From positions 13,591 through 63,288 of the forward strand of contig NZ_ML762444.1 in the NCBI RefSeq assembly GCF_009498735.1: a stretch of 49,698 nt of DNA. Direction: 5' to 3'. Position 1 is the first letter of the stretch, and each line of letters opens with the position of its first letter. This DNA is from Gracilibacillus oryzae. GTDB taxonomy: Bacteria > Bacillota > Bacilli > Bacillales > Amphibacillaceae. Under the pieces are notes generated by a model. The model was not told the origin of the DNA, made no database searches, and was given only the letters and a program-made list of their open reading frames with translations. Below, piece by piece: positions 4,222 to 49,698 of this stretch. The position numbers and the translations under genes were made by a program.

Positions 4222-4340
4222 GAGATTTGTTTGTAAAGCCAATATAATCGACAAATCTTGGGCGCTGACATATGAGATTTGTTCCTGGTCACCTATCAAC
4301 AAATAAATCTCAACTGCTGATCCCAAGATTTGTTCTTATC
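4222..4340. repeat. 52-bp-period repeat array A, about 2.3 units
   Basis: The word AGATTTGTT starts at 4223, 4275 and 4326, spacings of 52 and 51 bp. The first unit has a perfect inverted repeat AGATTTGT / ACAAATCT. The motif recurs in array E at 36.4 kb. The array fills the end of the 332-bp gap between two convergent genes; 4041-4221 holds nothing I can name. Confidence 0.6.
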
Positions 4341-4359
4341 CCCTCAAGAAACACCTCAT

Positions 4360-5217
4360 TCACACATATCTTCCAACAATCCGATCAACTGAACCGCCGT
4401 ATCCTTCGCCAAACAGGTTCAGGTGCACGAGTAAGTAGAATAATTGATAGAGCGGTTTCACTTCTTCATAATAGTCTGCTAATGGGAAGGAGTCCTGATA
4501 GCTTTGGTAAAAATCTGCCGGAAATCCGCCGAACAATTCGGTAAAGGCTATTTCAAACAAATGGTCACCATAAACTACAGAAGGATCGATTAAATAAGGT
4601 TCGCCGCCAGGTCCAGTGATCCAGTTTCCGCCCCACAAGTCACCATGAAGTAATGAAACTCGCGGGTTTTTCGGTATATAATTTTCGAGCTTCATCAATA
4701 GTTTTTCCAATTGCTTCCGACGTTCCCCTCGAATGGTTCCATTTCTTGTCCCCAATTCCAGCTGAGCTCCTAACCGCTTCTCACGATAATAATAAAGCCA
4801 GTCATCATCCCAGTCATTCTCCTGGGTGATTTCACCAACAAAAGTAGTACCACTCATTCCATATAATCCATCCGTTTCGCTTAAATGAAGCTCTGCCAGT
4901 TTCTCGCCTAATATTTTACCTGTCGCAGTGCTTTTTTCGCCTCCCACCCATTCCATGATTAAATAAATCTCTTCATTTCCTGAAGCAATATCAACATGAT
5001 AAACTTCTGGAACGCGAATGGTTTCTGTTGCCCGTAACCGCTCTAATCCGTCCGCTTCTATTTTGAAAAAATCTGCTGGTACATTAATATTTTTTTTTAC
5101 AAAATATTCTCTTATTTCTGTCTTCACATAAAAAGCCTTGTTAATATCACCACCGGAAATGGAGGTGATCTCCTTAATATCTGTATTGTCACCAATTTGC
5201 TTAAGCCTTGCTTGCAT
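4360..5217 (-). CDS. Fructosamine-3-kinase family protein
   Basis: A 285-residue soluble protein of the fructosamine kinase family, which phosphorylates sugar adducts on lysines or free amines so that they decompose, a form of deglycation. The kinase-like fold is visible: SISGGDIN near residues 19-25 in the nucleotide loop region, the catalytic loop HGDLWGGN at 191-198, and the metal-binding DPSVVYGD at 211-218. Length matches the usual 285-290. Start ATG at 5217 is preceded by GGAAGGAGG on the minus strand. It converges on the acyltransferase gene, separated by array A. Bacterial members may act on ribulosamines or erythrulosamines; the real substrate is not shown by the sequence. Confidence 0.9.
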   Translation of the reverse strand: MQARLKQIGDNTDIKEITSISGGDINKAFYVKTEIREYFVKKNINVPADFFKIEADGLERLRATETIRVPEVYHVDIASGNEEIYLIMEWVGGEKSTATGKILGEKLAELHLSETDGLYGMSGTTFVGEITQENDWDDDWLYYYREKRLGAQLELGTRNGTIRGERRKQLEKLLMKLENYIPKNPRVSLLHGDLWGGNWITGPGGEPYLIDPSVVYGDHLFEIAFTELFGGFPADFYQSYQDSFPLADYYEEVKPLYQLFYLLVHLNLFGEGYGGSVDRIVGRYV

Positions 5218-5306
5218 TGTTTTTCCTCCTTCCGCACAAAGTATAGCATGACTTCTATCAAGTTTTCATGTAAAATAGGTAACGTTTGAAAGAAAGAGGT
5301 GTAAAA

Positions 5307-6644
5307 ATGCAAAGAGAAAATTGGGCTTCTCGACTTGGTTTTATGTTGGCTGCGATGGGATCAGCTGTTGGCTTAGGAAACATCTGGCGCTTTTCTTATG
5401 TGGCTGGTGAAAGTGGCGGGGGAGCATTCCTTATTTTATATATAATTAGTGTGCTCGTCATTGGTATCCCTCTATTATTAGTAGAGGTAAGTATTGGAAG
5501 AAAGGCTCAGCAGGATGTTGTTGGTTCTTATAAGAAACTTGTGCCAAACAAACCCTGGTTTATGGTTGGTTACTTAGGTGTTTTAGGTACAATGTTAATT
5601 TTGAGCTTTTACAGTGTGGTGGCAGGCTGGTCACTTTATTATTTGTGGGGGTATATAACAGGTGCGATGGTGCCGATGCCGGAAAATGGGTATGGTGCAG
5701 CATTTGATTCTTTTATCACACAAGACTATGCGCCGATTTTTTGGCATGGACTGTTCTTAGCGTTAACCATGCTGATTGTTTTGGTCGGTATTAAAAATGG
5801 AATTGAACTTGCTAACAAAATATTAATGCCTGTTTTAGCATTATTAATGATTGGATTAGCTGTATACTCTGTCACGCTTCCTGGAGCTGGTGAAGGGCTC
5901 GCCTTCTTATTTCAGCCGGATTGGTCTGTGTTAAAGGATCCATCTGTCTATTTTTCAGCAATGGGACAGGCATTTTTCTCCTTAAGTCTTGGAATCGGGA
6001 CAATGCTGACATATGGCAGCTATTTATCAAAATCACAAAAGCTTCCAGGTCCAGTAGTGGGGATTGGGGTACTGGATACACTATTTGCGATAATTTCAGG
6101 GGTAGTTATTTTCCCGGCGGTTTTTGCTTTTAATATTGATCCAAGCTCTGGTCCGACATTAGTGTTTATTACATTACCGGAAATATTCCATCAGATGAGC
6201 TTTGGACATGTAATTGCCATTATCTTTTTTACAGCATTAAGTTTCGCAACTATCTCTTCTTCTATCTCTTTACTGGAAGTTCCGGTGGCTTATCTTATGC
6301 GTGCAGCGAAATTATCCCGTCCGCTTGCTTCCTTTCTTGTCAGTATTGTGATCTTTATTCTTGGTGTGACCGTATCGCTAGGAATGGGGAAATGGAGTGG
6401 CATAACGCCAATTGGCGATCGTAATATTCTAGATTCGATGGATTATATCGCATCTAACATTTTTATGCCTGTCGGGGGCTTGACAATGGCACTGTTAATG
6501 GGCTGGTACTGGAACAAAAGTGAGGCACTTTCTTCTACCGATTTATCCGAGAAGAAGATTGGAGATGTGTGGTATCTGCTGATAAAATTCAGTGCTCCAA
6601 TTCTTATCCTAATTATTTTCTTAAATCAGATTGGAAATGTATAA
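5307..6644 (+). CDS. Sodium-dependent transporter of the neurotransmitter:sodium symporter (NSS) family
   Basis: A 445-residue protein with about eleven membrane helices. The N-terminus carries the NSS signature in helix 1 (GSAVGLGNIWRFSYV, about residues 18-32), whose unwound part binds the substrate and sodium, followed by SGGGAF. Such proteins (LeuT, and YocR/YhdH in B. subtilis) import amino acids with sodium; the exact amino acid cannot be read off. An in-frame TTG at 5286 exists, but ATG 5307 has AGAGGTG at the right distance and gives the standard start. It is divergent from the fructosamine kinase gene. YwdI follows after 28 bp. Confidence 0.9.
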   Translation: MQRENWASRLGFMLAAMGSAVGLGNIWRFSYVAGESGGGAFLILYIISVLVIGIPLLLVEVSIGRKAQQDVVGSYKKLVPNKPWFMVGYLGVLGTMLILSFYSVVAGWSLYYLWGYITGAMVPMPENGYGAAFDSFITQDYAPIFWHGLFLALTMLIVLVGIKNGIELANKILMPVLALLMIGLAVYSVTLPGAGEGLAFLFQPDWSVLKDPSVYFSAMGQAFFSLSLGIGTMLTYGSYLSKSQKLPGPVVGIGVLDTLFAIISGVVIFPAVFAFNIDPSSGPTLVFITLPEIFHQMSFGHVIAIIFFTALSFATISSSISLLEVPVAYLMRAAKLSRPLASFLVSIVIFILGVTVSLGMGKWSGITPIGDRNILDSMDYIASNIFMPVGGLTMALLMGWYWNKSEALSSTDLSEKKIGDVWYLLIKFSAPILILIIFLNQIGNV

Positions 6645-6672
6645 TGATAGTAAATGATCGGGAGGAATAAGA

Positions 6673-6942
6673 ATGGCCATTACAGATAAACAGATTTTAA
6701 CAAAAATCATCCGTGAATGTGAACAGGCATTGCAAAATGGTAAAACGCGGGAGCATGCGAAAGCTGTCCAATCATTGGCTGATCTGCTGCTTGACAGCAC
6801 TGAACAGCAAATAGAAACAACCAGTGTAAATGAGCAAATCTCAGCAAGCGAATGGCGGAAGATGGTAGGGGACAAACCATTAAAACGCACATCAAATGTG
6901 GAGCTCGATGAAGAGAATAGTGATTCTTTACTTGATTTTTAG
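6673..6942 (+). CDS. ywdI: YwdI family protein (DUF5327)
   Basis: An 89-residue soluble protein, mostly helical in the first half (heptad-like LxxIIxxxxxAL pattern) and acidic at the C-terminus. It resembles B. subtilis YwdI, a conserved Bacillaceae protein of unknown function. The start has GGGAGG at 6660-6665. It is followed 15 bp later by ywdK, so the two are probably one operon, as in B. subtilis. No catalytic motif is visible. Confidence 0.75.
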   Translation: MAITDKQILTKIIRECEQALQNGKTREHAKAVQSLADLLLDSTEQQIETTSVNEQISASEWRKMVGDKPLKRTSNVELDEENSDSLLDF

Positions 6943-6957
6943 AGAGGAGAGAGTAGG

Positions 6958-7326
6958 TTGAAAATTTTTCTATTATTAGGGATTATTAATGGATTTCTTG
7001 CCGTAGCTTTAGGTGCATTCGGGGCACACGGTCTTGAAGGTAGATTATCAGAGAAACAACTGGCAACATATGAAAAAGCGGTGCAGTACCAGATGTTCCA
7101 TACAGTGGCGCTGCTTGCTGCAGGTTTTCTTATGCAAAAAATTTCAGCAGCAAGCATCTCCTCTGCCGGTTGGTTCTTTTTTGCCGGAATTGTATTGTTC
7201 TCAGGCAGTCTCTATATTTACTCAACAACCGGAATAAAAACGTTTGCCATGATTACACCCGTCGGCGGTCTGGCATTCTTAATCGGCTGGGTTCTATTAG
7301 GCTATGCTGTAGTAAAATTTATCTGA
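6958..7326 (+). CDS. ywdK: DUF423 family membrane protein YwdK
   Basis: A 122-residue protein with four predicted membrane helices. The N-terminal segment GAFGAHGLEG followed by YEKAVQYQMFHTVALL is the DUF423 signature. The start is TTG 6958, chosen because AGAGAGGAGAG lies just before it and the family begins with this short hydrophobic helix. The gene forms an operon with ywdI. Its 3' end overlaps the converging small gene on the minus strand by 8 bp. The function of DUF423 proteins is unknown. Confidence 0.88.
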   Translation: MKIFLLLGIINGFLAVALGAFGAHGLEGRLSEKQLATYEKAVQYQMFHTVALLAAGFLMQKISAASISSAGWFFFAGIVLFSGSLYIYSTTGIKTFAMITPVGGLAFLIGWVLLGYAVVKFI

Positions 7327-7564
7327 ACATAAAAAAGCATGTAATAAGGATAATGCCAATTCCGCGTAACAATTGCTGAGAGAAGGCATATTTATCGTTT
7401 TTAAGGTATGCTTGTACTGCTTCCAATACGAGAATAGCAGCGATCATCAGAAAAGAACAGAATAAGAGTATGCTGGATTGCAATTGCCATCCAACGAAAA
7501 GAAAAGGTATTGTCAATATGATGAAAGAAGTTGCAATATCGTTTATATTCGCTTTTTGCTTCAA
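7319..7564 (-). CDS. Small hydrophobic membrane protein of unknown function
   Basis: An 81-residue protein with two or three membrane helices (about residues 10-24, 28-48 and 67-81). The best start is TTG 7564, which has GGAGG nine bases upstream; the longer in-frame reading to 7597 lacks a ribosome binding site. The stop overlaps the end of ywdK by 8 bp on the other strand. I do not recognise the family. The good ribosome binding site and tight packing support it as a real gene. Confidence 0.55.
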   Translation of the reverse strand: MKQKANINDIATSFIILTIPFLFVGWQLQSSILLFCSFLMIAAILVLEAVQAYLKNDKYAFSQQLLRGIGIILITCFFMFR

Positions 7565-7584
7565 TGCAGATCGCCTCCAAAATA

Positions 7585-7620
7585 CAGAAAAGCACAAGTG
7601 TGAGCGCTTGTGCTTTTTCT
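7585..7620 (-). terminator. Hairpin terminator downstream of gerQ
   Basis: Perfect 9-bp arms AAGCACAAG (7590-7598) and CTTGTGCTT (7607-7615), followed by T runs on both sides, so it may work in both directions. On the minus strand it ends gerQ and lies just before the ribosome binding site of the small membrane protein gene. Confidence 0.7.
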
Positions 7621-7643
7621 CATAATGATGTATAAGGAAATGT

Positions 7644-8111
7644 CTATCTAGGAGAATAGTTTACCATTGGCTGATTATATGGATATTCATACTCAATTTC
7701 TTCATCAAACGTAATGTAATCTAAGTATACCATTAATAAAATATATCGCTTGCCTGTCTCAGGATCACTTAAAATAATATGGTCACGCCCAGCCGCTTCA
7801 ATAATTCCTTTAAAAATTTTTGCATTCCAGCGTTCGTTGTTTTCAAATGTCATATAAACTGTGGCACGCTTTCCTCTGTTTAACCGTAAAATATTCTCAA
7901 TATAAGATTGTTCGACAGGCAGCATTCCTGGTACATCGGATACATTTGGCTGCTGGCCTTGCATCTGCATCTGTCCCTGCATCGGGATCTGAGCTGGTGT
8001 TTGATAATAAGACTGCTGGGGATACCCGCTTTGCATGCCATAATAATTTTGTGGATTATATGTCATCCCGGCTCCTTGTTGTTGTCTCACCTGACTTTGC
8101 TCTTGATTCAT
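7644..8111 (-). CDS. gerQ: Spore coat protein GerQ
   Basis: A 155-residue protein. The first 60 residues are rich in Gln, Tyr, Pro and Met (QSGYPQQSYYQ and MQGQMQMQGQQ), and the C-terminal half (VEQSYIENILRLNRGKRATV onward) is the conserved GerQ domain. In B. subtilis GerQ (YwdL) sits in the inner spore coat, is needed to localise the cortex hydrolase CwlJ during germination, and is cross-linked by the transglutaminase Tgl. The glutamine-rich N-terminus fits that cross-linking. The start has AGAGAGGAG upstream. It stands next to hemQ, as ywdL does near ywfI in B. subtilis. A mother-cell promoter is expected but I could not fix one. Confidence 0.93.
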   Translation of the reverse strand: MNQEQSQVRQQQGAGMTYNPQNYYGMQSGYPQQSYYQTPAQIPMQGQMQMQGQQPNVSDVPGMLPVEQSYIENILRLNRGKRATVYMTFENNERWNAKIFKGIIEAAGRDHIILSDPETGKRYILLMVYLDYITFDEEIEYEYPYNQPMVNYSPR

Positions 8112-8290
8112 TTCATCGAACTCCTCTCTAGTTCAGAAAATTTATCGTGCTTTTCCATTTTCCTACTAGCCATATGTATGCACAGGATGAAACAATCATG
8201 CATGAAAAAAAGAAAAACTCGGCATAGCGAGTATCGAACTTTTTCCTATACATTATACTTTCTGAGTGAATTCCCGCTTCCCTTAAAGAA

Positions 8291-8323
8291 TAAAAAAAGC
8301 ACACGAAAAAGACGTGTGCTTAT
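8291..8323 (-). terminator. Intrinsic terminator of hemQ
   Basis: Perfect 9-bp arms at 8297-8305 and 8313-8321 (AAGCACACG and complement) with seven T on the minus strand. It overlaps the hemQ stop codon at 8320-8322. Confidence 0.88.
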
Positions 8324-9066
8324 ACATGTAAATATGCTGGAATTTTTTCAATTGGCAAAATGTTGCCGACATAGAATTTACCGAATTCGCCATAGCGGGC
8401 GCTGACTACATCAAAGCGCATTTCATAAACGATTTTCTTTAATTGGAGAACATCTTTGGCGAATAAGGTAACACTCCATTCCCAATCATCGAAGCCCATG
8501 CTACCTGTAATAATCTGTTTTACCTGGCCGGCATATTTACGGCCTGTGAAGCTGTGTTCATACATTAACTGACGTCGCTCATCGAATGGGAGCATATACC
8601 AGTTGTCATTACCTTCCCGGCGCTTGTCCATTGGATAAAAACAGATATGTTCCCAGTCAGGCAATTTCGGCTTCAGACGTGCACGAACGCCAGGATTTTC
8701 TTCCGGAACTTCGCCTTCTTTTGTCATATATTTGGATAACTCTACGACAGATACGTAAGAATAGCTTGGTTTCGTAAACTCAGCAAATTTTGATTTATTA
8801 AACGTAAGTTCAATCTCACCAAGTTCCTGCATTGTAGGTCTTAAGATCATCAGAAGGATATCTGCTTTCTGTCCCATTATCGAATAAAAGGCATGGCTTC
8901 CTTCGCGGGCTTCCGCAACTTCTTCCCATGATTCAAGCATGGACTGCAGCTCTTTTGTCGCCTGTTCACGTTCTTGTTCTGTTGCCTGTTTCCATTTTGC
9001 CCAGTCAATTGTTCTAAGGTCATGCAAACAATACCAGCCATCCATTGTTTCTACTGCTTCTGGCAT
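8320..9066 (-). CDS. hemQ: Coproheme decarboxylase HemQ
   Basis: A 248-residue chlorite-dismutase-fold enzyme that makes heme b from coproheme in the last step of the Gram-positive coproporphyrin pathway. The catalytic Tyr144 in CFYPMDKRR and the proximal heme ligand His171 in [10 protein letters not shown] are present, at positions nearly identical to those known for Staphylococcus aureus (145 and 172). Length is normal. The start ATG 9066 has AAAAGGAGAG upstream. It is divergent from pta, the usual arrangement of ywfI and pta in B. subtilis. Confidence 0.96.
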
Positions 9067-9250
9067 GATTCATCTCTCCTTTTCCATCCAACTCTAGTTT
9101 TAATATAACATATTTAGGGAAAAATAAGCACAAGATAGAGCAGTGATACTGATTTGAATTTGTCAGAAATATGAACAAATAAAAATTTTAAAGCTTTAAA
9201 ACGCATTCATATAAGCTTTTGCTTTTATTATTACACAAAATGGCGTAGTA

Positions 9251-9256
9251 TATAAT
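9251..9256 (+). promoter_or_regulatory. Candidate -10 box of pta
   Basis: TATAAT 28 bp before the pta start codon. No good -35 hexamer lies 16-18 bp upstream (TTATTA is closest), so an activator may help, or this is not the promoter. Confidence 0.4.
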
Positions 9257-9283
9257 ACAGATGAAAAATTGGAGGGTTTATTA

Positions 9284-10255
9284 ATGAGCGATTTATTTAC
9301 AGATGTGAAAAACAAATTAGCTGGAACTTCAAGAAAGATCGTATTTCCTGAAGGTTTAGATGAACGGATTCTGGAAGCTGCAAGCCAATTGGCGACGGAA
9401 GGAATAGTGGAACCTGTACTAATCGGAAATGATGAAAAAATAGAACAGAAGGCGAAAGAATTAAAGCTTGATATTTCTAATGCTACCATTATCGACCCAA
9501 ATAATTATGGAGAATTCGAGCAGATGGTCACAGCATTTGTTGAACGCCGTAAAGGGAAAGCAACAGATGAAGAAGCACGCAAGTTTTTAGTTGATGAAAA
9601 CTATTTTGGCACAATGCTTGTTTATATGGACAAAGCAGACGGCTTAGTAAGTGGTGCAGCACACTCTACTGCAGACACGGTAAGACCTGCTTTACAGATC
9701 ATTAAAACAAAAGAAGGTGTGAAAAAGACATCTGGTGTTTTCATTATGGTGCGTGAAGAGGAGAAGTATGTTTTTGCTGATTGTGCAATCAATATCTCGC
9801 CAGACAGCCAGGATCTGGCAGAAATCGCGGTAGCAAGTGCAGAAACAGCACAATTATTCAACATCGACCCACGTGTAGCGATGCTGAGTTTCTCAACAAA
9901 AGGTTCGGCAAAATCACCGGAAACAGAAAAAGTAGCAGAAGCAGTTACTGCTGCAAAAACGTTCGCACCAGATTTAGTAGTAGATGGCGAATTCCAATTT
10001 GATGCCGCATTTGTTCCCTCAGTAGCAGCGAAGAAAGCACCAGACTCTGTGATCAAAGGTGACGCAAATGTATTTGTATTCCCAAGTTTGGAAGCAGGAA
10101 ATATCGGCTACAAAATCGCTCAGCGCCTAGGCGGATTTGATGCAGTAGGCCCGATCCTACAAGGATTAAACAAACCAGTTAACGATTTATCCCGCGGCTG
10201 CAGTGCAGACGATGCTTACAAATTAGCGCTTATTACAGCAGCACAAGCACAGTGA
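9284..10255 (+). CDS. pta: Phosphate acetyltransferase
   Basis: A 323-residue phosphotransacetylase, the same length as B. subtilis Pta. It interconverts acetyl-CoA and acetyl phosphate in the overflow pathway to acetate. The N-terminal RKIVFPEGLDERIL and the later SFSTKGSAKSPETEKV with DGEFQFDAAF are typical of the short, catalytic-domain-only class. ATG 9284 is preceded by GGAGGG at the correct distance; the in-frame TTG at 9269 overlaps that site and is not likely used. The stop codon lies inside the terminator. No acetate kinase gene is in this window. Confidence 0.96.
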   Translation: MSDLFTDVKNKLAGTSRKIVFPEGLDERILEAASQLATEGIVEPVLIGNDEKIEQKAKELKLDISNATIIDPNNYGEFEQMVTAFVERRKGKATDEEARKFLVDENYFGTMLVYMDKADGLVSGAAHSTADTVRPALQIIKTKEGVKKTSGVFIMVREEEKYVFADCAINISPDSQDLAEIAVASAETAQLFNIDPRVAMLSFSTKGSAKSPETEKVAEAVTAAKTFAPDLVVDGEFQFDAAFVPSVAAKKAPDSVIKGDANVFVFPSLEAGNIGYKIAQRLGGFDAVGPILQGLNKPVNDLSRGCSADDAYKLALITAAQAQ

Positions 10256-10279
10256 GTTTTTACTCGCTGTGTTTTTTTC
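10248..10279 (+). terminator. Intrinsic terminator of pta
   Basis: Arms CACAGTGAGT (10248-10257) and ACTCGCTGTG (10262-10271) with one wobble pair and a TTTT loop, then seven T. It contains the pta TGA stop. Confidence 0.9.
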
Positions 10280-10299
10280 TGTGCAGTGATTGAGAGTGT

Positions 10300-11060
10300 T
10301 GGAGGGATGGAGAGGGATTCTGAATGCCGTGAGTGGGGATCTTTTGAGGAGTGAAGGAATTGAGAAGGAGTCTGAATGCCATGAGTGTTGACTTTGTGCA
10401 GAGTGAAGGAATTGAGAGGACAGCTGAATGCCAAGAGTGTGGGATTTTTGAGGAGTGAAGGAATTGAGAGTGGGGCTGAATGCCATGAGTGTTGACTTTG
10501 TGTAGAGTGAAGGAATTGAGAGGGCAGCTGAATGCCAAGAGTGTGTGATTTTTGAGGAGTGAAGGAATTGAGAGGGAGTCTGAATGCTAAGAGTGTCGGA
10601 TTTTTGAGGAATGAAGGCATTGAGAGGGAGTCTGAATGCCATGAGTATTGATTTTGTGCAGAGTGAAGGAATTGAGAGGGGCAGCTGAATGCCAAGAGTG
10701 TGGGATTTTTGAGGAGTGAAGGAATTGAGAGTGGGGCTGAATGCCAAGAGTGTGGGATTTTTGAGAAGTGAAGGCATTCAGAAGGAGTCTGAATGCCATG
10801 AGTGTTGACTTTGTGCAGAGTGAAGGAATTGAGAGGGCAGTTGAATGCCGTGAGTGTTGACTTTGTACTGAGTGAAGGAATTGAGAGGGAGTCTGAATGC
10901 CGTGAGTGTTGACTTTGTACAGAGTGAAGGAATTGAGAGGGAGTCTGAATGCCGTGAGTGATGACTTTGTGCAGAGTGAAGGAATTGAAAGGGCAGCTGA
11001 ATGCCGTGAGTCCAGCTTTTTTCCAGACTCAAAGCATTGAGAGCTAGTTTAAAATGCCAA
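10300..11060. repeat. 52-bp-period repeat array B, 15 units
   Basis: The hexamer AATGCC (once AATGCT) begins at 10323, 10375, 10427, 10479, 10531, 10583, 10635, 10688, 10740, 10792, 10844, 10896, 10948, 11000 and 11053: twelve spacings of 52 and two of 53. Each unit has a core starting GAAGGAATTGA and ending TCTGAATGCC, then a 20-bp linker of two alternating types (TGAGTGTTGACTTTGTGCA or AGAGTGTGGGATTTTTGAG). Core ends are partly complementary; at 10774-10797 they form a perfect 10-bp inverted repeat. Long minus-strand reading frames here are by-products of the repetition. Confidence 0.9.
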
Positions 11061-16937: not shown

Positions 16938-17300
16938 GAAACTCGCAAGAAGCGCGCCCAAAGTCGCAAGAAGCACGCCCAAACTCGCAAGAAGCACACG
17001 CAAACTCGCAAGAAGCGCACCCAAAGTCGCAAGAAGCACACGCAAACTCGCAAGAAGCACCCCCAAAGTCGCAAGAAGCACCCGCAAAGTCGCAAGAAGC
17101 ACGCCCAAAGTCGCAAGAAGCACCCGCAAAGTCGCAAGAAGCCCCCGCCAAGTCGCAAGAAGCACCCGCAAAGTCGCAAGAAGCGCCCGCAAGCTCGCAA
17201 GAAGATCGCCAAACTCGCAAGAAGCACCCGCAAACTCGCAAGAAGCCCCCGCAAGCTCGCAAGAAGATCGCCAAAGTCGCAAGAAGCACCCGCAAACTCA
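16938..17300. repeat. 21-bp tandem repeat array, about 17 copies
   Basis: TCGCAAGAAG recurs 17 times, mostly every 21 bp, with a linker such as CACCCGCAAAG. The period is a multiple of three and the unit lacks stops, so several frames on both strands stay open and give false proteins of 7-residue repeats. None has a ribosome binding site. The array is unusually GC-rich for this genome. It lies between convergent ywhD and pbpG; the rest of this 600-bp gap holds only the terminator at 16857. Confidence 0.9.
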
Positions 17301-17347
17301 CAAAAAAAGCAGGAAACCGAAAAATACGCCTTCCCGCTCAAAAACAA

Positions 17348-26984: not shown

Positions 26985-27275
26985 TCCTGGTGGATATGAT
27001 AAGAAAAATGCTTTTACCTATCAAAAGTAGGACAAGCTTAGGTGGATTTGATAGGAAAAACGGTTCTACCTATCAAAAGTAGGACAAGCCGAGGGAGATT
27101 TGATAGGAAAAGTGGTTCTACCTATCAAAAGTAGGGAAAGTCAGTGGAGATATGATAGGAAAAGCGGTTCTACCTATCAAAAGTAGGGAAAGTCAGTGGA
27201 GATATGATAGGAAAAGCGGTTCTACCTATCAAAAGTCGGACAAGCCAATAGAGATATGATAGGAAAGCGACCTTG
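26985..27275. repeat. 52-bp-period repeat array D, 5.5 units
   Basis: CCTATC begins at 27017, 27069, 27121, 27173 and 27225, every spacing exactly 52 bp, and a half unit follows. Units contain TGATAGGAAAAGCGGTTCTA then CCTATCAAAAGTAGG; TGATAGG and CCTATCA form a perfect 7-bp inverted repeat. It lies between the kinase-like gene and element R4. Confidence 0.9.
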
Positions 27276-35225: not shown

Positions 35226-35304
35226 TCATCTGTATGAAAAAATGCGTTTATCGCATAATTAAACTCTGTTTCTTAAGGATTCAGGGCAAAAGGAGTGGAC
35301 AGAC

Positions 35305-39330: not shown

Positions 39331-39331
39331 G

Positions 39332-41539: not shown

Positions 41540-42150
41540 GGCTCAAGGAATTGAGAGTGAGTCTGAATGCCAAGACGCTCGGGGAGAGAGTAGCTGAAGG
41601 AATTGAAAGTGAGTCTGAATGCCAAGACGCTCGGGGAGAGAGTAGCTGAAGGAATTGAGAGCGAGTCTGAATGCCATGACGCTCGATGAAAGGGTAGCTG
41701 AAGGAATTGAGATCGAGTCTGAATGCCGTTACGCTCGGAGACAGAGTAGCTGAAGGAATTGAAAGCGAGTCTGAATGCCAAGACGCCCGATGAAAGAGTA
41801 GCTGAAGGAATTGAGATCAAGTCTGAATGCCAAGACGCCCGGGGAGAGAGTAGCTGAAGGAATTGAAAGTGAGTCTGAATGCCAAGACGCTCGGGGAGAG
41901 AGTAGCTGAAGGAATTGAGAGTGTGTCCGAATGCCAAGACGCTCGGGGAGAGAGTAGCTGAAGGAATTGAAAGTGAGTCTGAATGCCAAGACGCTCGGGG
42001 AGAGAGTAGCTGAAGGAATTGAAAGTGAGTCTGAATGCCAAGACGCCCGATGAAAGGGTAGCTGAAGGAATTAAGATCGAGTCTGAATGCCAAGACGCCA
42101 AGAAAAAGAGCAGAACAAGGCATTCAGAGTAGCTCTGAATGCCAGAACAA
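41540..42150. repeat. 52-bp-period repeat array F, 12 units
   Basis: AATGCC begins at 41566, 41618, 41670, 41722, 41774, 41826, 41878, 41930, 41982, 42034, 42086 and 42138: eleven spacings, all exactly 52 bp. Units have the core GAAGGAATTGA...TCTGAATGCC seen in array B, but a different linker (AAGACGCTCGGGGAGAGAGT). The last unit carries a perfect 11-bp hairpin, GGCATTCAGAG at 42119-42129 with its complement at 42133-42143. The remaining 130 bp before ywlC contains no recognisable feature. Confidence 0.92.
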
Positions 42151-42283
42151 GTGAAAAACCTCCCCGCAGGATCAAGAGTTTTCGCCAAGCTTCCTTACAC
42201 TAATTTACGATAAGAGAAACTTGCACATTCAAAGAATTCCATCCATAATAATGACAAGAACATCAAACAATTGAGGGATACTA

Positions 42284-43294: not shown

Positions 43295-43304
43295 GTTAAC
43301 ATAA

Positions 43305-43356
43305 CCCCCTTTGAGGCTGCATATGCATAGAAAGAATGCATGTCCAGCGAAGGGGG
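43305..43356 (+). promoter_or_regulatory. Hairpin leader that covers the mntP ribosome binding site
   Basis: Nested arms pair CCCCCTT (43305-43311) with AAGGGGG (43350-43356), GCTG (43316-43319) with CAGC (43345-43348), and ATGCAT (43323-43328) with ATGCAT (43336-43341). The outer 3' arm is the ribosome binding site of the TTG start at 43366, so the folded form should block translation. It could alternatively act as a ywlC terminator, but no T run follows. It does not look like the yybP-ykoY manganese riboswitch. Confidence 0.6.
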
Positions 43357-43365
43357 CTATTTAAT

Positions 43366-43905
43366 TTGGCACTAGGCGATTTTATTTCCATTGTGTTTAT
43401 GGCATTTGCGTTAGGGATGGATGCCTTTTCGGTAGGATTGGGGATCGGGATGCAGGCCATTCGTTTAAAACGGATTTTTATAATCGGGCTGACTGTCGGT
43501 ATTTTTCATATCGTGATGCCCTTTATTGGATTAATCCTTGGAACCTATATTTCCCATAATATAGAAGGGATCGCGATATTGGCAGCAGGTCTTTTATTGT
43601 GCGGAATTGGACTGCAAATGATTATCCACACTTTTTTAAAAAAAGACAGTCCATTAGCGCCCGTAGGTTTCGGTTTGTTTGTGTTTGCATTTACTGTCAG
43701 TCTTGATAGTTTCTCTGTTGGATTGTCATTAGGGTTATCAGGTGTTGAGACAGTATTAGCAATCATTCTGTTCGGACTTTTCAGTACAATCTTAACATGG
43801 ACAGCCCTGTTGATCGGCCGCAGAACACATCATTTACTTGGCACATACAGTGAGATACTTGGTGGCTGTATTTTGTTTGGTTTCGGCTTGAATATATTAT
43901 TCTGA
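43366..43905 (+). CDS. mntP: Manganese efflux pump MntP (YwlD)
   Basis: A 179-residue protein with six membrane helices in two repeated halves, each with an acidic-start motif: ALGMDAFSVGLGIGM and TVSLDSFSVGLSLGL. These Asp residues form the metal site of MntP proteins, which export Mn(II). TTG 43366 is the likely start, nine bases after GGGGG; an in-frame ATG at 43336 falls in the leader hairpin. It follows ywlC as ywlD does in B. subtilis, but here a hairpin leader separates them. Confidence 0.9.
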   Translation: MALGDFISIVFMAFALGMDAFSVGLGIGMQAIRLKRIFIIGLTVGIFHIVMPFIGLILGTYISHNIEGIAILAAGLLLCGIGLQMIIHTFLKKDSPLAPVGFGLFVFAFTVSLDSFSVGLSLGLSGVETVLAIILFGLFSTILTWTALLIGRRTHHLLGTYSEILGGCILFGFGLNILF

Positions 43906-43960
43906 TCAATATATGATATGCTTAAGTGAGAATTTTAGATAATGGGGGCATCAATTAGCG

Positions 43961-44524
43961 ATGAGAATATTATTTGTATGTACAGGCAATACATGCAGAA
44001 GCCCGATGGCGGAAGCAATGTTAAAGGAAAAAACGAATCATGAGGTGATCTCAGCCGGAATCATGGCAGCAGACGGATTCCCGGCATCTCAGGCAACAGT
44101 AGAAGTATTGCGCAATAAAGGAATCAGGCTTGATCATCAGTCAAGACAACTGAACCACGAGCTGATCCAATGGGCTGATCTGATTTTAACAATGACAGCA
44201 GGCCACAGGGACAGCATTAAGCACCAGTTTCCTGAAGTAAGAGAGCGGACTTTTACATTAAAAGAGTACACCATTCCTGAATATGAGACGGCATGGCAGA
44301 AACTGAAACAAGCTTATGCCAAACTGGAAGAAGCAAAGGTAACAGCCAGTCCGGTAAAACAACGGGAAATGGCCGAAGAAATTACAAAATTAGAAGCAAT
44401 GGTACGAGATACAGATATATCCGATCCTTTTGGGTCTAACGTCTCAATATACGAAAAAACTTATGACGAATTGGAAAAACATCTTGCTATATTAGTAAAA
44501 AAGTTGGAGAATATAGATAGATAA
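43961..44524 (+). CDS. ywlE: Low-molecular-weight protein arginine phosphatase YwlE
   Basis: A 187-residue phosphatase removing phosphate from arginine residues marked by the kinase McsB. The P-loop FVCTGNTCRSPM has Cys7, and Thr11 is the residue reported to favour phosphoarginine over phosphotyrosine. The general-acid region is SDPFGSN. B. subtilis YwlE is about 150 residues; this one has about 35 extra residues (ETAWQKLKQAYAKLEEAK and the following helix) inserted before the catalytic Asp. GGGGGC is the ribosome binding site, rather distant from the ATG. Confidence 0.9.
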   Translation: MRILFVCTGNTCRSPMAEAMLKEKTNHEVISAGIMAADGFPASQATVEVLRNKGIRLDHQSRQLNHELIQWADLILTMTAGHRDSIKHQFPEVRERTFTLKEYTIPEYETAWQKLKQAYAKLEEAKVTASPVKQREMAEEITKLEAMVRDTDISDPFGSNVSIYEKTYDELEKHLAILVKKLENIDR

Positions 44525-44548
44525 TTTGTCATATTTAGGAGGCGTCAT

Positions 44549-45847
44549 ATGGGGGAAAAAAGGAAGGGATTAAGTTTGCGGTTAAAGCTGGTTATCTTTA
44601 CAACAACACTGGCTATTGTTACTTATTCCACAAGTGCTGTCTTTATTTATTTTTTACAAGAATTAATCACACCGTTCGTGCCAATTTCAGAAGTATGGTA
44701 TGTGCTGGCGGTCTTACTGCTCGGGATATTCTGGTCAGGAGTGCTGGCATTTGTTGCGTCAGGCTTTATCACAAAACCACTCGTTGTATTGAAAAATGTA
44801 GCTAAAAAGGTGGCTGAAGGTGATTTAAATCAAACAATCGAAGCACCGAAAACAACAGAAGATGAAATCGGAGCATTGACAATCTCTTTTCAGCAGATGG
44901 TAGATCATTTAAAGACAGTCATGACAGATATTGAGAAGCATGCATCTGAAACAACCGATTCTGTACATAAAATGAAAGAAGCAGCATCCCGTTCCAAACA
45001 ACAGACAGAAGCACTGGAAGAAACGATTGGGCAAATTTCCCAGGGTGCGGAAGAATCAGCAGAAGCAATTCAGCAAACGGCAGAGTCTGTCGGCAATTCA
45101 ACTGATCTTGCTTCACAAGTGGATGGAAAAGCAGAAGAGTCTCAGACAAAGTCGAACGAAATGGTCAACCAGCTTACACAGTCCAACCAGGTTATCCAGG
45201 AACTGGTCCAGGGAATCATGCAAATTGCGGAGAACCAGGAAAATGCGCTAGGCGATGTGAACAGGCTTTCCCAAAAAGCGAAAGAAGTGGAAAATGTTAT
45301 CTCCCTTGTTGGTGATATCAGTGAACAAACGAATTTACTGGCATTGAATGCTTCGATTGAGGCTTCCAGAGCAGGAGAGGAAGGCAGAGGATTTGCCGTT
45401 GTTGCGGAAGAAGTGCGAAAATTGGCGGATCAGAGTTCACAGGCAGTCCATAGTATTACCGATCTGATCAAAGGAATGCAAAAAGATGTCGAACTCGTTG
45501 TTGGTAATATTCAGGAGCAAGTGAATCAGACAAGAGGAGAAATGTCAAAAGGTGAGCAGACGACAAAAGTCCTGGAAAGCATGACAGGCTCTGTACACAG
45601 TGTCGCTGAAGCAATTAAAGAAATTTCCGGTCTTGTAGCAACACAGGTAAAAGAAATCGAGTCAGCACAGTCCCAGTCACAAAATGTTGCGGCAATAGCC
45701 GAAGAAACATCTGCAGGTGCAGAGGAAATCCGGGCAACTATTGAGGAACAGGCGGATTTTGCCGAAAATTTAGAAAATTTAGCGATTGGGCTCGAAAAAC
45801 AAGCACAAAACTTGAAAATTCAAATGGAGCAATTTAAGCTGAATTAA
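44549..45847 (+). CDS. Methyl-accepting chemotaxis protein with a minimal sensor region
   Basis: A 432-residue chemoreceptor. Two membrane helices (about residues 11-32 and 47-72) are separated by only about 15 residues, so there is no extracellular ligand domain. HAMP follows ([21 protein letters not shown]), then a long coiled coil whose tip has the signature [20 protein letters not shown], binding CheA and CheW. It may sense membrane state or interact with another sensor. AGGAGGCG precedes the start. It sits between ywlE and rpiB, an insertion relative to the B. subtilis order. Confidence 0.9.
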
Positions 45848-45876
45848 ACAATACTTTTTCAAAGGAGATCATCTTC

Positions 45877-46317
45877 ATGAAAGTCATTTTAGCGTCAGAC
45901 CATGGTGGTATTAATTTATCGAAAGAGATTGCTTCATTATTAGAAGAATTACATATCGAGTTTGAAGATACTGGCTGTAACTGTGAGGATTCTGTTGATT
46001 ATCCGGACTACGGCATCCCGGCAGCAGAACGTGTGGCGAACGGCGAATTTGACCGCGGCATTTTAATTTGCGGTACAGGAATCGGCATGAGCATTGCTGC
46101 CAACAAAGTAAAAGGTATCCGCGCCGCATTAGTGCATGATGTATTCAGTGCCAAAGCGACACGTGAACATAATGATTCCAATATGCTGGCAATGGGTGAG
46201 CGAGTAATTGGTCCAGGGCTTGCACGAGAAATTGTGCAGACATGGTTAGGCACCGATTTTCAAGGAGGTCGCCATGCCAATCGTATCGGCAAAATGGCAG
46301 ATTATGAAAACAAATAA
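45877..46317 (+). CDS. rpiB: Ribose-5-phosphate isomerase B (YwlF)
   Basis: A 146-residue RpiB/LacAB family isomerase interconverting ribose 5-phosphate and ribulose 5-phosphate. Catalytic Cys65 lies in ILICGTGIGMSIAANK, with Asp8-His9 in ASDHGG and the later HDVFSA and REHNDSN. AAAGGAGAT is the ribosome binding site. YwlG follows after 24 bp, so they share a transcript. Related family members act on other sugars, so the substrate is inferred from position and motif. Confidence 0.92.
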   Translation: MKVILASDHGGINLSKEIASLLEELHIEFEDTGCNCEDSVDYPDYGIPAAERVANGEFDRGILICGTGIGMSIAANKVKGIRAALVHDVFSAKATREHNDSNMLAMGERVIGPGLAREIVQTWLGTDFQGGRHANRIGKMADYENK

Positions 46318-46341
46318 GTGACGAAGGGAGGACATTGAGCG

Positions 46342-46884
46342 ATGCAGCTGGAGCAATGGGCAAAAGAATTAAGAGAGATTGTAGATGAATGGCTAACGCT
46401 TGATCTCCTTTCTGAAGGTGACTTGTTTGTAGTTGGCTGTTCCACAAGTGAAGTTGCAGGTGAACATATTGGAACAGCAGGCAGTGAAGAGATTGCCGAA
46501 ATGATTTATCAAGAGCTTTCCCGCCTGGAGGAAAAAACAGGTGTGGCTCTAGCATTTCAATGCTGTGAACATTTAAACAGAGCAATCGTCATGGAAAAAG
46601 CAGTAATGCGTGAACGGAGACTGGACGAAGTGACGGTCATCCCTGTTCGGAAAGCAGGTGGCTCAATGGCAGCACATGCCTACAAACAATTCCAGGAACC
46701 TGTCGTTGTTGAGGCAATTGAGGCAGATGCCGGTATGGATATCGGGGAAACGATGATTGGAATGCATTTAAAAAGAGTGGCGATTCCGCTTCGTTTAAAG
46801 CAGCGTTATGTTGGCCATGCACGTGTAAGCAATGCAAAAACTAGACCAAAATTGATCGGCGGACCTCGTTCCGTTTACTGCTAA
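46342..46884 (+). CDS. ywlG: YwlG family protein (UPF0340/DUF436)
   Basis: A 180-residue soluble protein matching the TIGR01440/DUF436 family: VVGCSTSEVAGEHIGTAGS near the start, FQCCEHLNRAI, and VRKAGGSMAAHAY in the middle. Function is unknown. GAAGGGAGGA precedes the ATG. It stands between rpiB and glyA, as in B. subtilis and many relatives, and ends with a strong terminator. Confidence 0.9.
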   Translation: MQLEQWAKELREIVDEWLTLDLLSEGDLFVVGCSTSEVAGEHIGTAGSEEIAEMIYQELSRLEEKTGVALAFQCCEHLNRAIVMEKAVMRERRLDEVTVIPVRKAGGSMAAHAYKQFQEPVVVEAIEADAGMDIGETMIGMHLKRVAIPLRLKQRYVGHARVSNAKTRPKLIGGPRSVYC

Positions 46885-46895
46885 CAGTTATGGAA

Positions 46896-46942
46896 ATATG
46901 CACCTTTATTTTGCTAATCACGAATAAAGGTGCATGTTTTTT
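46896..46942 (+). terminator. Intrinsic terminator of ywlG
   Basis: Perfect 13-bp arms ATGCACCTTTATT (46898-46910) and its complement (46923-46935), then six T after one G. Confidence 0.92.
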
Positions 46943-47065
46943 ACTTTTTATTCGTAAAAACTCTAGAATTTTTTCCAAGTTAATGTTATTTTAGATATAC
47001 ATATTGGAAATAACGAATATTAAAGGAAAGTAATACACCAAAAATGGTTGAGGGGGAAGCAAATA

Positions 47066-48304
47066 ATGAAGCATTTGCAAGAATTTGATCCAGAACTTTT
47101 TCAATCGATGGAAGATGAAAGAAAACGTCAAAATGACAAAATCGAATTGATCGCATCAGAAAACTTTGTCTCAGAGGCAGTAATGGAAGCCCAAGGATCT
47201 GTATTAACAAACAAATATGCAGAAGGATACCCAGGCAAACGTTACTATGGCGGCTGTGAGTATGTCGATATTGCGGAAGATTTAGCTCGTGACCGTGCCA
47301 AAGAATTATTCGGTGCAGAGTATGCGAACGTGCAGCCACACTCAGGTGCACAGGCAAATATGGCTGTTTACTTTACTATACTTGAGCCAGGTGACACTGT
47401 GCTTGGTATGAACTTAAGCCATGGTGGACACTTAACACACGGAAGCCCGGTTAACTTCAGCGGAAAACTTTTCAATTTTGTGGACTATGGCGTAAACGAA
47501 GAGTCAGAACAAATTGATTATGATGCTGTGTTAGCGAAGGCGAAAGAAGTAAAACCGAAATTGATCGTAGCTGGTGCGAGTGCTTACCCTCGTCAAATCG
47601 ATTTTGCTAAATTCCGTGAAATCGCCGATGAAGTTGGCGCATACCTAATGGTCGACATGGCGCACATCGCGGGACTTGTTGCAACAGGTTTGCATCCAGC
47701 CCCAGTGCCGCATGCACATTTTGTTACAACAACAACACATAAAACATTACGCGGACCTCGCGGTGGGATGATTTTATGTAAAGAAGAATTCGGTAAACAA
47801 ATTGACAAAACAGTATTCCCGGGAATGCAAGGTGGCCCGCTAATGCACGTAATCGCTGCAAAAGCTGTTGCCTTAAAAGAAGCATTACAGCCATCTTTCA
47901 AAGAATATGGCGAGAACATCATCAAAAATGCCAAACGTTTCGGCGAAGTGCTTCAATCAGAAGGAATCCGCATCGTTTCGGGTGGAACGGAAAACCACTT
48001 GTTACTTCTTGATGTTCGCGGTCTGAACCTTACTGGAAAAGACGCAGAAGCAGCATTAGATGAAGTTGGCATCACAACAAACAAAAACACGATTCCATTC
48101 GATCCGGAAAGCCCATTTGTCACAAGCGGTGTACGTGTTGGTACAGCTGCCGTTACAACTCGCGGCTTTGGTGAGGAAGAGATGGAAGAAGTGGCGAAAA
48201 TCATCGCTTTCACATTGAAAAATCATGAAGATGAAGCAGCACTGGAAGAAGCACGTCAACGAGTTTCTGCATTAACAGCTAAATTCCCATTATATCAAAG
48301 ATAA
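47066..48304 (+). CDS. glyA: Serine hydroxymethyltransferase
   Basis: A 412-residue PLP enzyme converting serine and tetrahydrofolate to glycine and methylene-THF, the main source of one-carbon units. The PLP-binding Lys226 is in [13 protein letters not shown], and the folate/substrate region LIASENFVS and [15 protein letters not shown] are present. ATG 47066 is preceded by GAGGGGGAAG; the in-frame TTG at 47048 overlaps that site. The gene is separated from ywlG by a terminator, so it has its own promoter within 46943-47040, which I could not fix. Confidence 0.97.
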
Positions 48305-48315
48305 CTATAGGCTTA

Positions 48316-48351
48316 TGAATCCTCTTGCCACTATGGTGAGAGGATTTTTTC
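48316..48351 (+). terminator. Intrinsic terminator of glyA
   Basis: AATCCTCT (48318-48325) and AGAGGATT (48339-48346), with inner GCCAC/GGTG pairs and a T run. Confidence 0.88.
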
Positions 48352-48353
48352 TG

Positions 48354-48382
48354 TTGACGAGCTGTGGTTTGTGGCATAAAAT
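48354..48382 (+). promoter_or_regulatory. Probable sigma-A promoter of the NERD gene
   Basis: TTGACG (48354-48359), 17-bp spacer, TAAAAT (48377-48382), immediately after the glyA terminator and 22 bp before the TTG start. Confidence 0.6.
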
Positions 48383-48404
48383 GGTAGAGAAAGGAAGTGA
48401 TCAA

Positions 48405-49331
48405 TTGATAGTAAAAGCAAGACAAAAATCGGAAGAGCATTTGATGTTGGAATCATTACATGCGCGAAATGGCCTCACTGAGAAAGACAAGCAGTATTAC
48501 TATGGATTAGAAAAAGGCTATCAAGGCGAACTGTTATTTGATTCATGGATGGAGGAACTGAAAGTAGATTGTCTGATTTTGAATGATGTACGCTTAAAAC
48601 AGCGAAATAATCATTTTCAGAACGATTCACTGATGCTTCTTGCAGGAAAACTGTTTTTGTTTGAAGTGAAAAATTTCGAAGGAGATTATTATTACGAAGC
48701 AGGACGCTTCCTTCAGAAAGATAAGGAAGAAAGAAATAATCCCCTGATTCAACTCGAAAAAAATGAATCACTGCTGCGCCAATTGCTGCATACCCACAAC
48801 ATTCAAGCCCCTGTTTTCGCCTATGTCGTTTTTGTTAACCCCGCATTCACCTTGTACCAAGCTCCAATGGACAAACCCATCATTTACCCAAGCCAGATCA
48901 GAAGATATCTCCAACAATTCAACCAGCTGTCAACACCTGTATCAATGAGAGAACGCCAACTGTCAGAAAAACTGACCGCGCTTCATAATGAAAAATCACC
49001 CTATTCTCAGGTGCCGGATTATGAGTTTGGACAGTTGAAGAAAGGAATGTATTGTGCGGGGTGTCGAAAGTTTACTCTTTTGGAAAGAAGAGAAAAACTA
49101 TTTTGCCCCAAATGTAATTGGGCCGAATCAGTTGAAAGTGCCGTAATACGGAATGTTAAAGAACAACAACTTCTCTTCCCAAACAGAAAAATAAGAACGA
49201 TTGAAACCTATGAATGGTGTGGGAAAATGATAGACAAACAGAGGATTTACCGAATTTTGTGTAAGCATTTGAATAAAAGGTATCATGGAAAAATGACCTA
49301 TTACGAATTCGAGAATCCAGAAGATATTTGA
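48405..49331 (+). CDS. NERD domain protein with zinc ribbon
   Basis: A 308-residue protein. Residues about 35-150 form a NERD (nuclease-related) domain: EKGYQGELLFDSWM, the Asp in NDSLMLLAGKLFLFEVKNFEG, where D...EVK fits a PD-(D/E)xK nuclease core. After a helical part comes a zinc ribbon (CAGC about 30 residues before CPKC-type FCPKCNW) and a C-terminal helix-rich piece (DKQRIYRILCKHLNKRY). This suggests a DNA-processing enzyme with a nucleic-acid-binding tail; the exact role is unknown. TTG 48405 has AAGGAAGTGA upstream; the in-frame ATG at 48381 overlaps the -10 box. Confidence 0.8.
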   Translation: MIVKARQKSEEHLMLESLHARNGLTEKDKQYYYGLEKGYQGELLFDSWMEELKVDCLILNDVRLKQRNNHFQNDSLMLLAGKLFLFEVKNFEGDYYYEAGRFLQKDKEERNNPLIQLEKNESLLRQLLHTHNIQAPVFAYVVFVNPAFTLYQAPMDKPIIYPSQIRRYLQQFNQLSTPVSMRERQLSEKLTALHNEKSPYSQVPDYEFGQLKKGMYCAGCRKFTLLERREKLFCPKCNWAESVESAVIRNVKEQQLLFPNRKIRTIETYEWCGKMIDKQRIYRILCKHLNKRYHGKMTYYEFENPEDI

Positions 49332-49362
49332 GTAACATACAGTTAAAAAGGAATATTTAGAT

Positions 49363-49698
49363 TTCCTAAACATCAAAGTGAGGATTGGAGTCCCAAGCAA
49401 TAAGAATAAGAGGAGTTAAAACATCAAGCGAATGCGGGGAGTAGGACGCAATGAAGAATAATAGGAGTTTAAACATCAGGCGAATGCGTGGAGTAGCACG
49501 CAATGAAGAATAAGAGTAGTTTAAACATCAAGCGAATATGTGGAGTAGCACGCAATGAAGAAAAAAATGAGTTTAAACATCAGCGGAGTGCGAGGAGTCC
49601 CGCGCACTGAAGAATAAGAGGAGTTTAAACATCAAGAGAATGCGAGGAGTCCCGGGCAATGAAGAATAAAAGTAGTTTAAACATCACCGGAATGCATG
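49363..49698. repeat. 52-bp-period repeat array G, at least 6-7 units, cut by window edge
   Basis: GTTTAAACATCA (first full unit GTTAAAACATCA) begins at 49415, 49467, 49519, 49571, 49623 and 49675, every spacing exactly 52 bp; a decayed unit precedes them at about 49364. Units contain the palindrome GTTTAAAC and a small hairpin TGCGTG-GAGTAG-CACGCA (varied in other units). It starts 30 bp after the NERD gene stop and continues beyond the window. Confidence 0.9.

What the first reader, a model, noticed from the sequence alone, without database searches (positions are those of the whole stretch)
4222..49698. A family of at least seven intergenic tandem arrays with different sequences but one fixed 52-bp period
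Seven arrays (A 4.2, B 10.3, C 15.1, D 27.0, E 36.4, F 41.5, G 49.4 kb) were found by counting marker words by hand. C, D, F and G give exactly 52 bp at every step (7, 4, 11 and 5 spacings); B gives twelve of 52 and two of 53; A and E are shorter and slightly looser (50-52). Except for A/E and B/F, the sequences are unrelated. Independent slippage would not be expected to fix the same length many times. The period equals about five turns of B-DNA, so repeated protein sites on one face of the helix, or a machinery that copies a fixed length, are both possible. I know of no described system of this kind; this is the strongest candidate for something new here.
Basis: partly seen in the sequence, partly recalled or inferred. 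Interest (0 to 1): 0.93.

Follow-up and report, generated by a model that had tools for sequence, protein, structure and literature searches.

The report
Five-helical-turn tandem DNA repeat arrays

Summary
The host is Gracilibacillus-like. What I add: (1) the units carry a 10.4-bp AT/GC alternation, five cycles per unit, in three unit sets, one of them the consensus units printed in that paper; 20-21-bp arrays show two cycles per unit. The window genome's largest family lacks it. (2) 20-21-, 41- and 51-52-bp arrays replace one another in the same orthologous gaps. (3) Most arrays lie behind genes (35 of 38 flanked ones). (4) Inverted-repeat arms vary less than half as much as other columns, without a clear RNA-type wobble bias. 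Best reading: helically phased DNA sites for an unknown architectural protein. No function is shown.

The parts
4220..4333 (.). Array A: degenerate remnant with GATTTGTT arms in both orientations, about two units, word spacing 52; between convergent genes (4027 + and 4360 -)
   Evidence: 12-bp word at 4220 and 4272; inverted copies; not called by TRF
10303..11011 (+). Array B: about 13.6 units of 52 bp, core GGAATTGAGA-N5-TCTGAATGCC; follows pta (9269-10255) and a terminator-like site
   Evidence: terminator-like site 13 bp after the stop codon
15108..15521 (+). Array C: 8 units of 52 bp with ATTTCCCG-TTAAT-CGGGATAT arms; strong 10.4-bp AT/GC alternation
   Evidence: its inverted repeat alone does not beat shuffles, p 0.148; the orthologous gap holds 51-bp arrays of other sequence in G016 and G012
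16939..17303 (.). 21-bp array, 17.5 copies (two helical turns), not listed by the finding; noncoding by my ORF calls, just after a terminator-like hairpin and convergent to the PBP gene
   Evidence: the orthologous gap holds a 52-bp array in G003 and a 41-bp array in G005
26993..27266 (+). Array D: 5.3 units of 52 bp, core TTTGATAGG-N13-CCTATCAAA, starts 26 bp after a stop codon
36353..36530 (+). Array E: 3.5 looser units (steps 52, 50, 50), core ATTTGTTSAT-N11-ATCAACAAAT; follows thymidine kinase and a terminator-like site
41541..42153 (+). Array F: 10.7 units of 52 bp with the array-B core, plus one diverged edge unit (to about 42153) that keeps a perfect palindrome GGCATTCAGA...TCTGAATGCC and the 52-bp step
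   Evidence: core sites in step to C21:55724-55733
49397..49686 (+). Array G: 5.6 units of 52 bp, contains GTTTAAAC; may run past the window end (not checked)

Best explanation
The arrays are satellite-like DNA elements of a kind already known from Bacillus. Shown here: their length is fixed at five helical turns; in most families an AT/GC pattern repeats at every turn inside the unit; most lie behind genes; their inverted-repeat arms are held more constant than the rest of the unit. Inferred: an abundant architectural (nucleoid) protein binds or wraps this DNA, makes one contact per unit on one face of the helix, and polymerises along the array, so the step (5 turns, or 2 turns in the 20-21/41-bp class) is selected while the sequence is free to drift and be replaced. 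The likely task is topological or insulating: a bent or bound block placed behind terminators between transcription units.
For: Periods: 40 of 71 strong noncoding arrays in 3.17 Mb are 51-53 bp, 12 are 20-21, 8 are 40-42 and one is 82; 12 of 12 strong arrays that I count as noncoding in a second sample are 51-52. AT/GC power at five cycles per unit: 2.84 for 30 non-B arrays against 1.24 for 2011 control 52-mers, 0 of 20,000 bootstraps; with family B kept in, 31 units, 0 of 200 shuffles; second sample, 12 units, 1.86 against 1.21, 818 of 20,000; 24 published consensus units 2.93, 0 of 2000 shuffles, highest of 12 frequencies (all 27 before dropping three near-duplicates: 2.96). 49 arrays of 20-21 bp: 1.76 at two cycles against 1.18, 5 of 20,000. 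Arms vary 4.0% against 9.0% elsewhere (the 24 arrays with a clear inverted repeat) and 3.0% against 8.9%. Worn edge units: searched from 30 to 75 bp out, the best arm match lies at 49-53 bp in 14 of the 14 edges that have one (34 of 48 edges have none). Where the sense strand is known, arm pairs went to G-U 7 times and to A-C 9 times. Array classes swap in the same gaps.
Against: No protein is identified and no binding is shown. Family B, the largest seen in the window's own genome, has no helical AT/GC signal (0.38) and below-control predicted bend, so the signal is not universal; I set it apart after seeing this. The window genome's nine non-B arrays alone show power at five cycles (2.05) and at six (2.01). 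Inverted repeats beat shuffles in only 23 of 40 units. In the second sample 3 of 8 flanked arrays sit in divergent gaps, against 0 of 30 before. G-U changes do exceed A-C overall (34 against 22), all of the excess coming from arrays in convergent or unclear gaps that I oriented by their purine-rich strand (27 against 13), and 12 against 6 in edge units; this leans towards RNA. B. coagulans 52-nt arrays are transcribed (PMC8625621, passages seen). The bend test used wedge values from memory.
Confidence: 0.43

Rival explanations
1. A length-setting amplification process with no selected function: something in these cells (DNA wrapped five turns round a protein, or a repair or replication step) makes tandem copies of 52 bp or 20-21 bp; arrays gather where they do no harm.
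For: Unrelated units share one length; sequences are species-specific (TCTGAATGCC: 101 sites in the window genome, 1-7 in each of 16 relatives); they lie mostly behind genes where little is disturbed.
Against: Duplications with under 2.5 copies are mostly not 52-bp (3 of 16 noncoding); worn edge units, where found, keep the 49-53-bp step; arms are constrained; a 10.4-bp pattern inside the unit is not expected of arbitrary copied DNA, though a wrapping-based copier could choose such DNA.
Confidence: 0.25
2. The arrays act as RNA: behind-gene transcripts with one hairpin per 52 nt that serve as small RNAs or as a sponge for an RNA-binding protein.
For: Inverted repeats in 23 of 40 units beat shuffles at p 0.05 or less; the sense strand is purine-rich in 17 of 19 tandem-gap arrays; G-U exceeds A-C in the arms overall (34 against 22) and in edge units (12 against 6); B. 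coagulans arrays are transcribed (PMC8625621).
Against: No G-U bias where the sense strand is known (7 G-U, 9 A-C); few compensatory changes (4 of 1329 cells); 28 of 47 gene ends facing an array have a terminator-like site first (not length-matched to its controls); 20.5/41/52-bp lengths and the 10.4-bp AT/GC pattern are DNA-helix numbers; no Rfam family reaches its gathering score over the arrays.
Confidence: 0.18
3. The arrays are decoy or operator clusters for several sequence-specific dimeric regulators, each family (TCTGAATGCC, TTTGATAGG, ATTTGTTGAT and others) with its own protein.
For: Arrays of one family in one genome share the core (arms plus loop) while the remaining 15-21 bp differ between arrays (read by eye); arms are more constant than spacers.
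Against: Arms differ between species; of all 6-letter words only GCCCGA (6 of 51 units) passes the multiple-word limit; distances between arms differ between families; most arrays are not in promoter gaps; it does not explain one step length for all.
Confidence: 0.12

Closest known systems
52-nt constant-length tandem repeats of Bacillus and other Firmicutes (Subirana and Messeguer 2021, PMC8161180; their 2020 J Bacteriol paper is cited there but not held here)
   Same: Unit length 51-53, variable species-specific sequence, several families per genome, noncoding, short signals and their reverse within a unit; the same authors' second class of 20-21 (and some 40-41) nt
   Different: Gracilibacillus is not named in its main text. 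I saw no 10.4-bp AT/GC pattern, gene-end placement, arm constraint or exchange of classes in one gap in its text; its supplements were not open to me and the 2020 paper could not be checked
REP/BIME elements of enterobacteria (recalled, no call)
   Same: Extragenic, mostly behind genes, inverted-repeat units in arrays
   Different: REP has one conserved sequence per species and a linked RAYT transposase (recalled); here several unrelated families in one genome share only the length. No RAYT search was made
CRISPR arrays
   Same: Regular direct repeats with an inverted repeat
   Different: The whole 52-bp unit, spacer included, is repeated; there are no unique spacers

Membership tests
52-nt Firmicutes satellites (PMC8161180) | Constant repeat length of 52 (51-53) | tested here: met
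   17 of 21 arrays (period >=25) of the own-genome sample are 52, the rest 50-53
52-nt Firmicutes satellites (PMC8161180) | Sequence varies between arrays and is species-specific | tested here: met
   core word TCTGAATGCC 101 times in own genome, 1-7 times in each of 16 genus relatives; other families of the genome were not counted in relatives
52-nt Firmicutes satellites (PMC8161180) | At least four repeats, not protein-coding | tested here: met
   B, C, D, F, G have 5 or more units; 52 is not a multiple of 3 and the arrays lie outside long ORFs; A and E fall short of four
52-nt Firmicutes satellites (PMC8161180) | Short signals and their reverse inside one unit | tested here: met
   inverted repeat p <= 0.05 in 23 of 40 units; in the window in D, E and G but not in B, C, F
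CRISPR | Constant repeats separated by unique spacers | tested here: not met
   the spacer part is shared by the units of an array
CRISPR | cas genes nearby or in the genome | not tested
   no cas search was made
REP/BIME with RAYT | Linked Y1 transposase of the RAYT type | not tested
   no family search for it was made
Known structured RNA (Rfam) | Match at gathering score over an array | tested here: not met
   the only match in the window is an L31 leader at 35264-35295

The most novel reading that the evidence does not exclude
The 20-21-, 41- and 52-bp satellites of Bacilli are one class: sequence-independent, helically phased blocks of bendable DNA placed behind transcription units and exchangeable in the same gap, read by a conserved architectural protein that steps two or five helical turns, in effect a bacterial counterpart of nucleosome-positioning satellites.
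Probability: 0.25. Interest if true: 0.87.

Novelty: new member of a known kind. Interest (0 to 1): 0.52.

Why it matters
PMC8161180 calls these repeats enigmatic and could give no reason for the constant length. A helical AT/GC code inside unrelated units, and the exchange of 2-turn, 4-turn and 5-turn arrays in the same gap, turn that open question into direct tests: shift the step by half a turn, or fish for a protein with array DNA against shuffled-unit DNA. If a protein is found, it would be a sequence-tolerant, period-reading organiser of bacterial chromosomes.

Tried and rejected
A universal sequence word in 51 non-redundant units (of 69): no 4- or 5-letter word passes; of 6-letter words GCCCGA (6 units) passes the 95% limit narrowly and TCATAA (6) just touches it; TGTCC/GGACA (9 units) does not pass. 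RNA wobble test in arms: no bias where the sense strand is known, a G-U lean elsewhere. Twist-sum test that 51-bp units should be more twisted than 52-bp units: no difference. Base and purine autocorrelation gave no clear 26-bp rule. Exclusion from divergent gaps: held in the first set (0 of 30) but not in the second (3 of 8; from their ORFs two of the three look clearly divergent and one probably); combined 3 of 38 against 271 of 1122, P 0.0098, so depletion, not exclusion. Dyad rule (GC-rich at the short-loop dyad): 12 of 14 units with loop 13 or less, counted by eye on the list, and only partly repeated. A further 38 class-level stretches gave three strong 52-bp arrays, all in one genome, G246; the two stretches that hold them were added to the second sample. 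Literature: nine searches; the 2020 paper is not held. When checking this report I lowered the best explanation from 0.45 to 0.43 and raised the RNA rival from 0.15 to 0.18, because the G-U lean had not been told.
Full report
WHAT IS THERE. TRF and a lag scan confirm the arrays of the finding (the scan stops before G). C, D, F and G run at 52 bp (one step of 51 in G); B has twelve steps of 52 and one of 53; E is looser (52, 50, 50); A is a remnant of about two units. A 21-bp array at 16939-17303, two helical turns per unit, lies in the same window and was not part of the finding. The window is G000:C21:13591-63288 of a 4.63-Mb draft in 53 contigs. Its pta protein is 89% identical to that of Gracilibacillus ureilyticus, the best of the loci returned (records very near the window's genome may be left out there).

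GENOME AND TAXON CENSUS. In the window and 20 stretches of its genome (422,634 bp) 21 of 21 arrays of period 25 or more are 50-53 bp. Seven of the 20 stretches had been picked for hits to array B; the 13 others gave four arrays, 50-52 bp. Over 159 stretches, mostly of Bacilli (3,166,626 bp; L041 and L042 left out as duplicates of genus genomes), 71 strong noncoding arrays (2.5 copies or more, score 100 or more) have periods 51-53 (40), 20-21 (12), 40-42 (8), 82 (1) and others (10); 11 strong arrays were called coding. Ten of the 40 belong to one family, B, of the window genome, so the 40 are not all independent. Gene calls are simple longest-ORF calls. A second sample of 440,000 bp (20 new stretches plus two, L219 and L220, already seen to hold arrays) gave 12 strong arrays of 51-52 bp by TRF. 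There I had moved the coding limit from 0.30 to 0.35 of the array; with the old limit one of the 12 (L219 487-947, 0.34) counts as coding, as. Three other strong arrays there (periods 9, 24, 40) were called coding.

LITERATURE. PMC8161180 (all five parts read) describes this kind: 4029 tandem repeats in 176 Bacillus genomes, 1886 of 51-53 nt and 781 of 20-21 nt, variable species-specific sequences, several families per genome, length conserved for unknown reasons; it suggests a polymerising nucleoid protein or small RNAs. PMC8625621 (passages) reports that B. coagulans arrays are transcribed. PMC6749651 (parts 1 and 2 of 5) is an earlier survey. The J Bacteriol 2020 paper was not held, so I cannot say what it reports on helical phase. 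PMC8161180 notes two turns for the 20-21-nt class; a term search of its main text found no 'terminat', 'convergent' or 'Gracilibacillus'.

HELICAL CODE. In the units, AT against GC alternates with five cycles per unit. For 30 arrays outside family B the normalised power is 2.84, against 1.24 in 2011 control 52-mers from gaps of the same loci, and no bootstrap of 20,000 reaches it. With family B included (31 units of exactly 52 bp) no shuffle of 200 reaches it. I set family B apart after seeing that it has no such signal; its mean over 10 units is 0.38. The second sample (12 units) gives 1.86 against 1.21 (818 of 20,000). The consensus units of Table 1 in PMC8161180, 24 left of 27 after I dropped three near-duplicates by eye, give 2.93, the highest of 12 frequencies, with no shuffle of 2000 reaching it; all 27 give 2.96. 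Forty-nine 20-21-bp arrays, some of them orthologues of one another, peak at two cycles per unit (1.76 against 1.18, 5 of 20,000). Nine 41-bp-class units show 2.59 at four cycles and 2.76 at two. A wedge model with recalled values gives 35.1 degrees of bend per unit against 28.3 for controls (52 of 5000), but family B is lower than controls, 16.9 against 25.8.

ANATOMY. The best inverted repeat of a unit beats shuffles at p 0.05 or less in 23 of 40 units; in the window this holds for D, E and G, not for B, C and F. Common layouts are arms of 10-12 bp with a 5-bp loop and a 25-27-bp spacer, or a loop near 13. Arrays of one family in the window genome share arms and loop while the remaining 15-21 bp are array-specific, and the sum stays 52 (read by eye). 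In the 24 arrays with a clear inverted repeat, arm columns vary 4.0% (121 of 2992) against 9.0% (405 of 4494) elsewhere; in the second sample 3.0% (26 of 858) against 8.9% (139 of 1554). At worn edges I searched 30-75 bp outward for the arms: 14 of 48 edges have a match of 60% or more, and in 14 of 14 it lies 49-53 bp out; 34 have none. Arm identity there is 0.71 against 0.49 for the rest, but the arms were used to choose the position, so only the distance is a fair test. Arm pairs changed to G-U 34 times and to A-C 22 times; where the sense strand is known from tandem genes, 7 and 9; in the others, oriented by purine content, 27 and 13; in edge units 12 and 6. So there is no bias where orientation is sure, and a lean to G-U where it is not.

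PLACE. Of 30 fully flanked 52-class arrays (of 40), 19 are in tandem gaps, 11 in convergent gaps, none in divergent gaps; 230 of 960 background gaps are divergent. The second sample contradicts strict exclusion: 3 of 8 are divergent. Together 3 of 38, still fewer than expected (P 0.0098). The sense strand is purine-rich in 17 of 19 tandem cases. A terminator-like site precedes the array at 28 of 47 gene ends facing a 52-class array, against 158 of 395 control gene ends and 85 of 1548 gene bodies; the stretches before arrays were of varying and often greater length than the 150-bp controls, so the excess over control gene ends is soft.

TURNOVER. TCTGAATGCC, the core of family B, occurs 101 times in the window genome (its reversed control 3 times), with many in 51-52-bp runs such as six sites at C5:155272-155541, but only 1-7 times in each of 16 genus relatives. 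The same gap carries different arrays in different species. Behind pta: 52 bp in the window genome, 52 bp of another sequence in G016 (taken to be G. ureilyticus, as its contig has the length of that named record), 51 in G015 (about two copies), 21 in G005 and G013, a shared 21-bp array in nine other relatives, none called in G003. Between 14965 and 16234: 52 here, 51 in G016 and G012, sequences different by eye. Between 16584 and 17348: 21 here, 52 in G003, 41 in G005. In 80 pta loci of other Bacilli the pta/lipL-like gap holds an array in 11 of 59 cases (nine of 20-21 bp, one 52, one 66), the 14462/16234 gap in 6 of 50 (three of 51-52, three of 20 bp), the 16234/PBP gap in 5 of 50 (four of 20-21 bp, one 126), the divergent gap before pta in 1 of 68 (56 bp), and the lipL-like/HD gap, divergent in the window but 1.2-2.1 kb wide in these cases, in 5 of 61. 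So the classes replace one another in the same places. I read this as a hint of shared function; permissive gaps could also explain it.

MECHANISM. Shown: fixed length, helical AT/GC pattern in most families, arm constraint, bias to gene ends, exchange of classes. Inferred: a protein that reads helical period and bend and polymerises along the array; an insulating or topological role behind terminators. Not shown: any protein, any phenotype. Among rivals, a length-setting copying process is the strongest; against it, noncoding duplications below 2.5 copies are only 3 of 16 at 51-53 bp while arrays with more copies are 40 of 56, and edge units, where found, keep the step.

VERDICT. A real and striking feature, a new member of a kind already in print, with new evidence that the constant length is about the DNA helix.

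Noticed in passing
window 16939-17303: A 21-bp, 17.5-copy noncoding array just behind a terminator-like hairpin, convergent to the PBP gene; the same gap holds a 52-bp or a 41-bp array in two relatives.
   Followed up: partly
L162 10271-10390 and the same gap in L156-L161, L163, L165: A 21-bp array (in L162 AAGTGGCCATAAAAC type, about 6 copies) sits between pta and the MLE gene in nine genus relatives; in L162 it runs from the C-terminal end of an ORF across its stop codon to the start of the next gene.
   Followed up: partly
G000 contigs C13, C14, C24, C28, C34, C35 (positions about 94-670): Family-B sites lie near the very start of several contigs, so arrays probably break the draft assembly.
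   Followed up: no
L058 12384-12686, L087 17045-17286, L091 18248-18509, L092 18522-18919, L151 1-238: A different, related-looking repeat of 122-126 bp with CTCGAG and CTTATG-like words, in two to three tandem copies, in several Bacillaceae.
   Followed up: no
L157 5448-5663: The unit contains TGTCCTTCAT...ATGAAGGACA arms nearly the same as a published B. coagulans family (8_52_18 of PMC8161180, Table 1), a case of shared arms between genera.
   Followed up: no
window 35264-35295: L31-Firmicutes ribosomal protein leader (Rfam RF03156).
   Followed up: no
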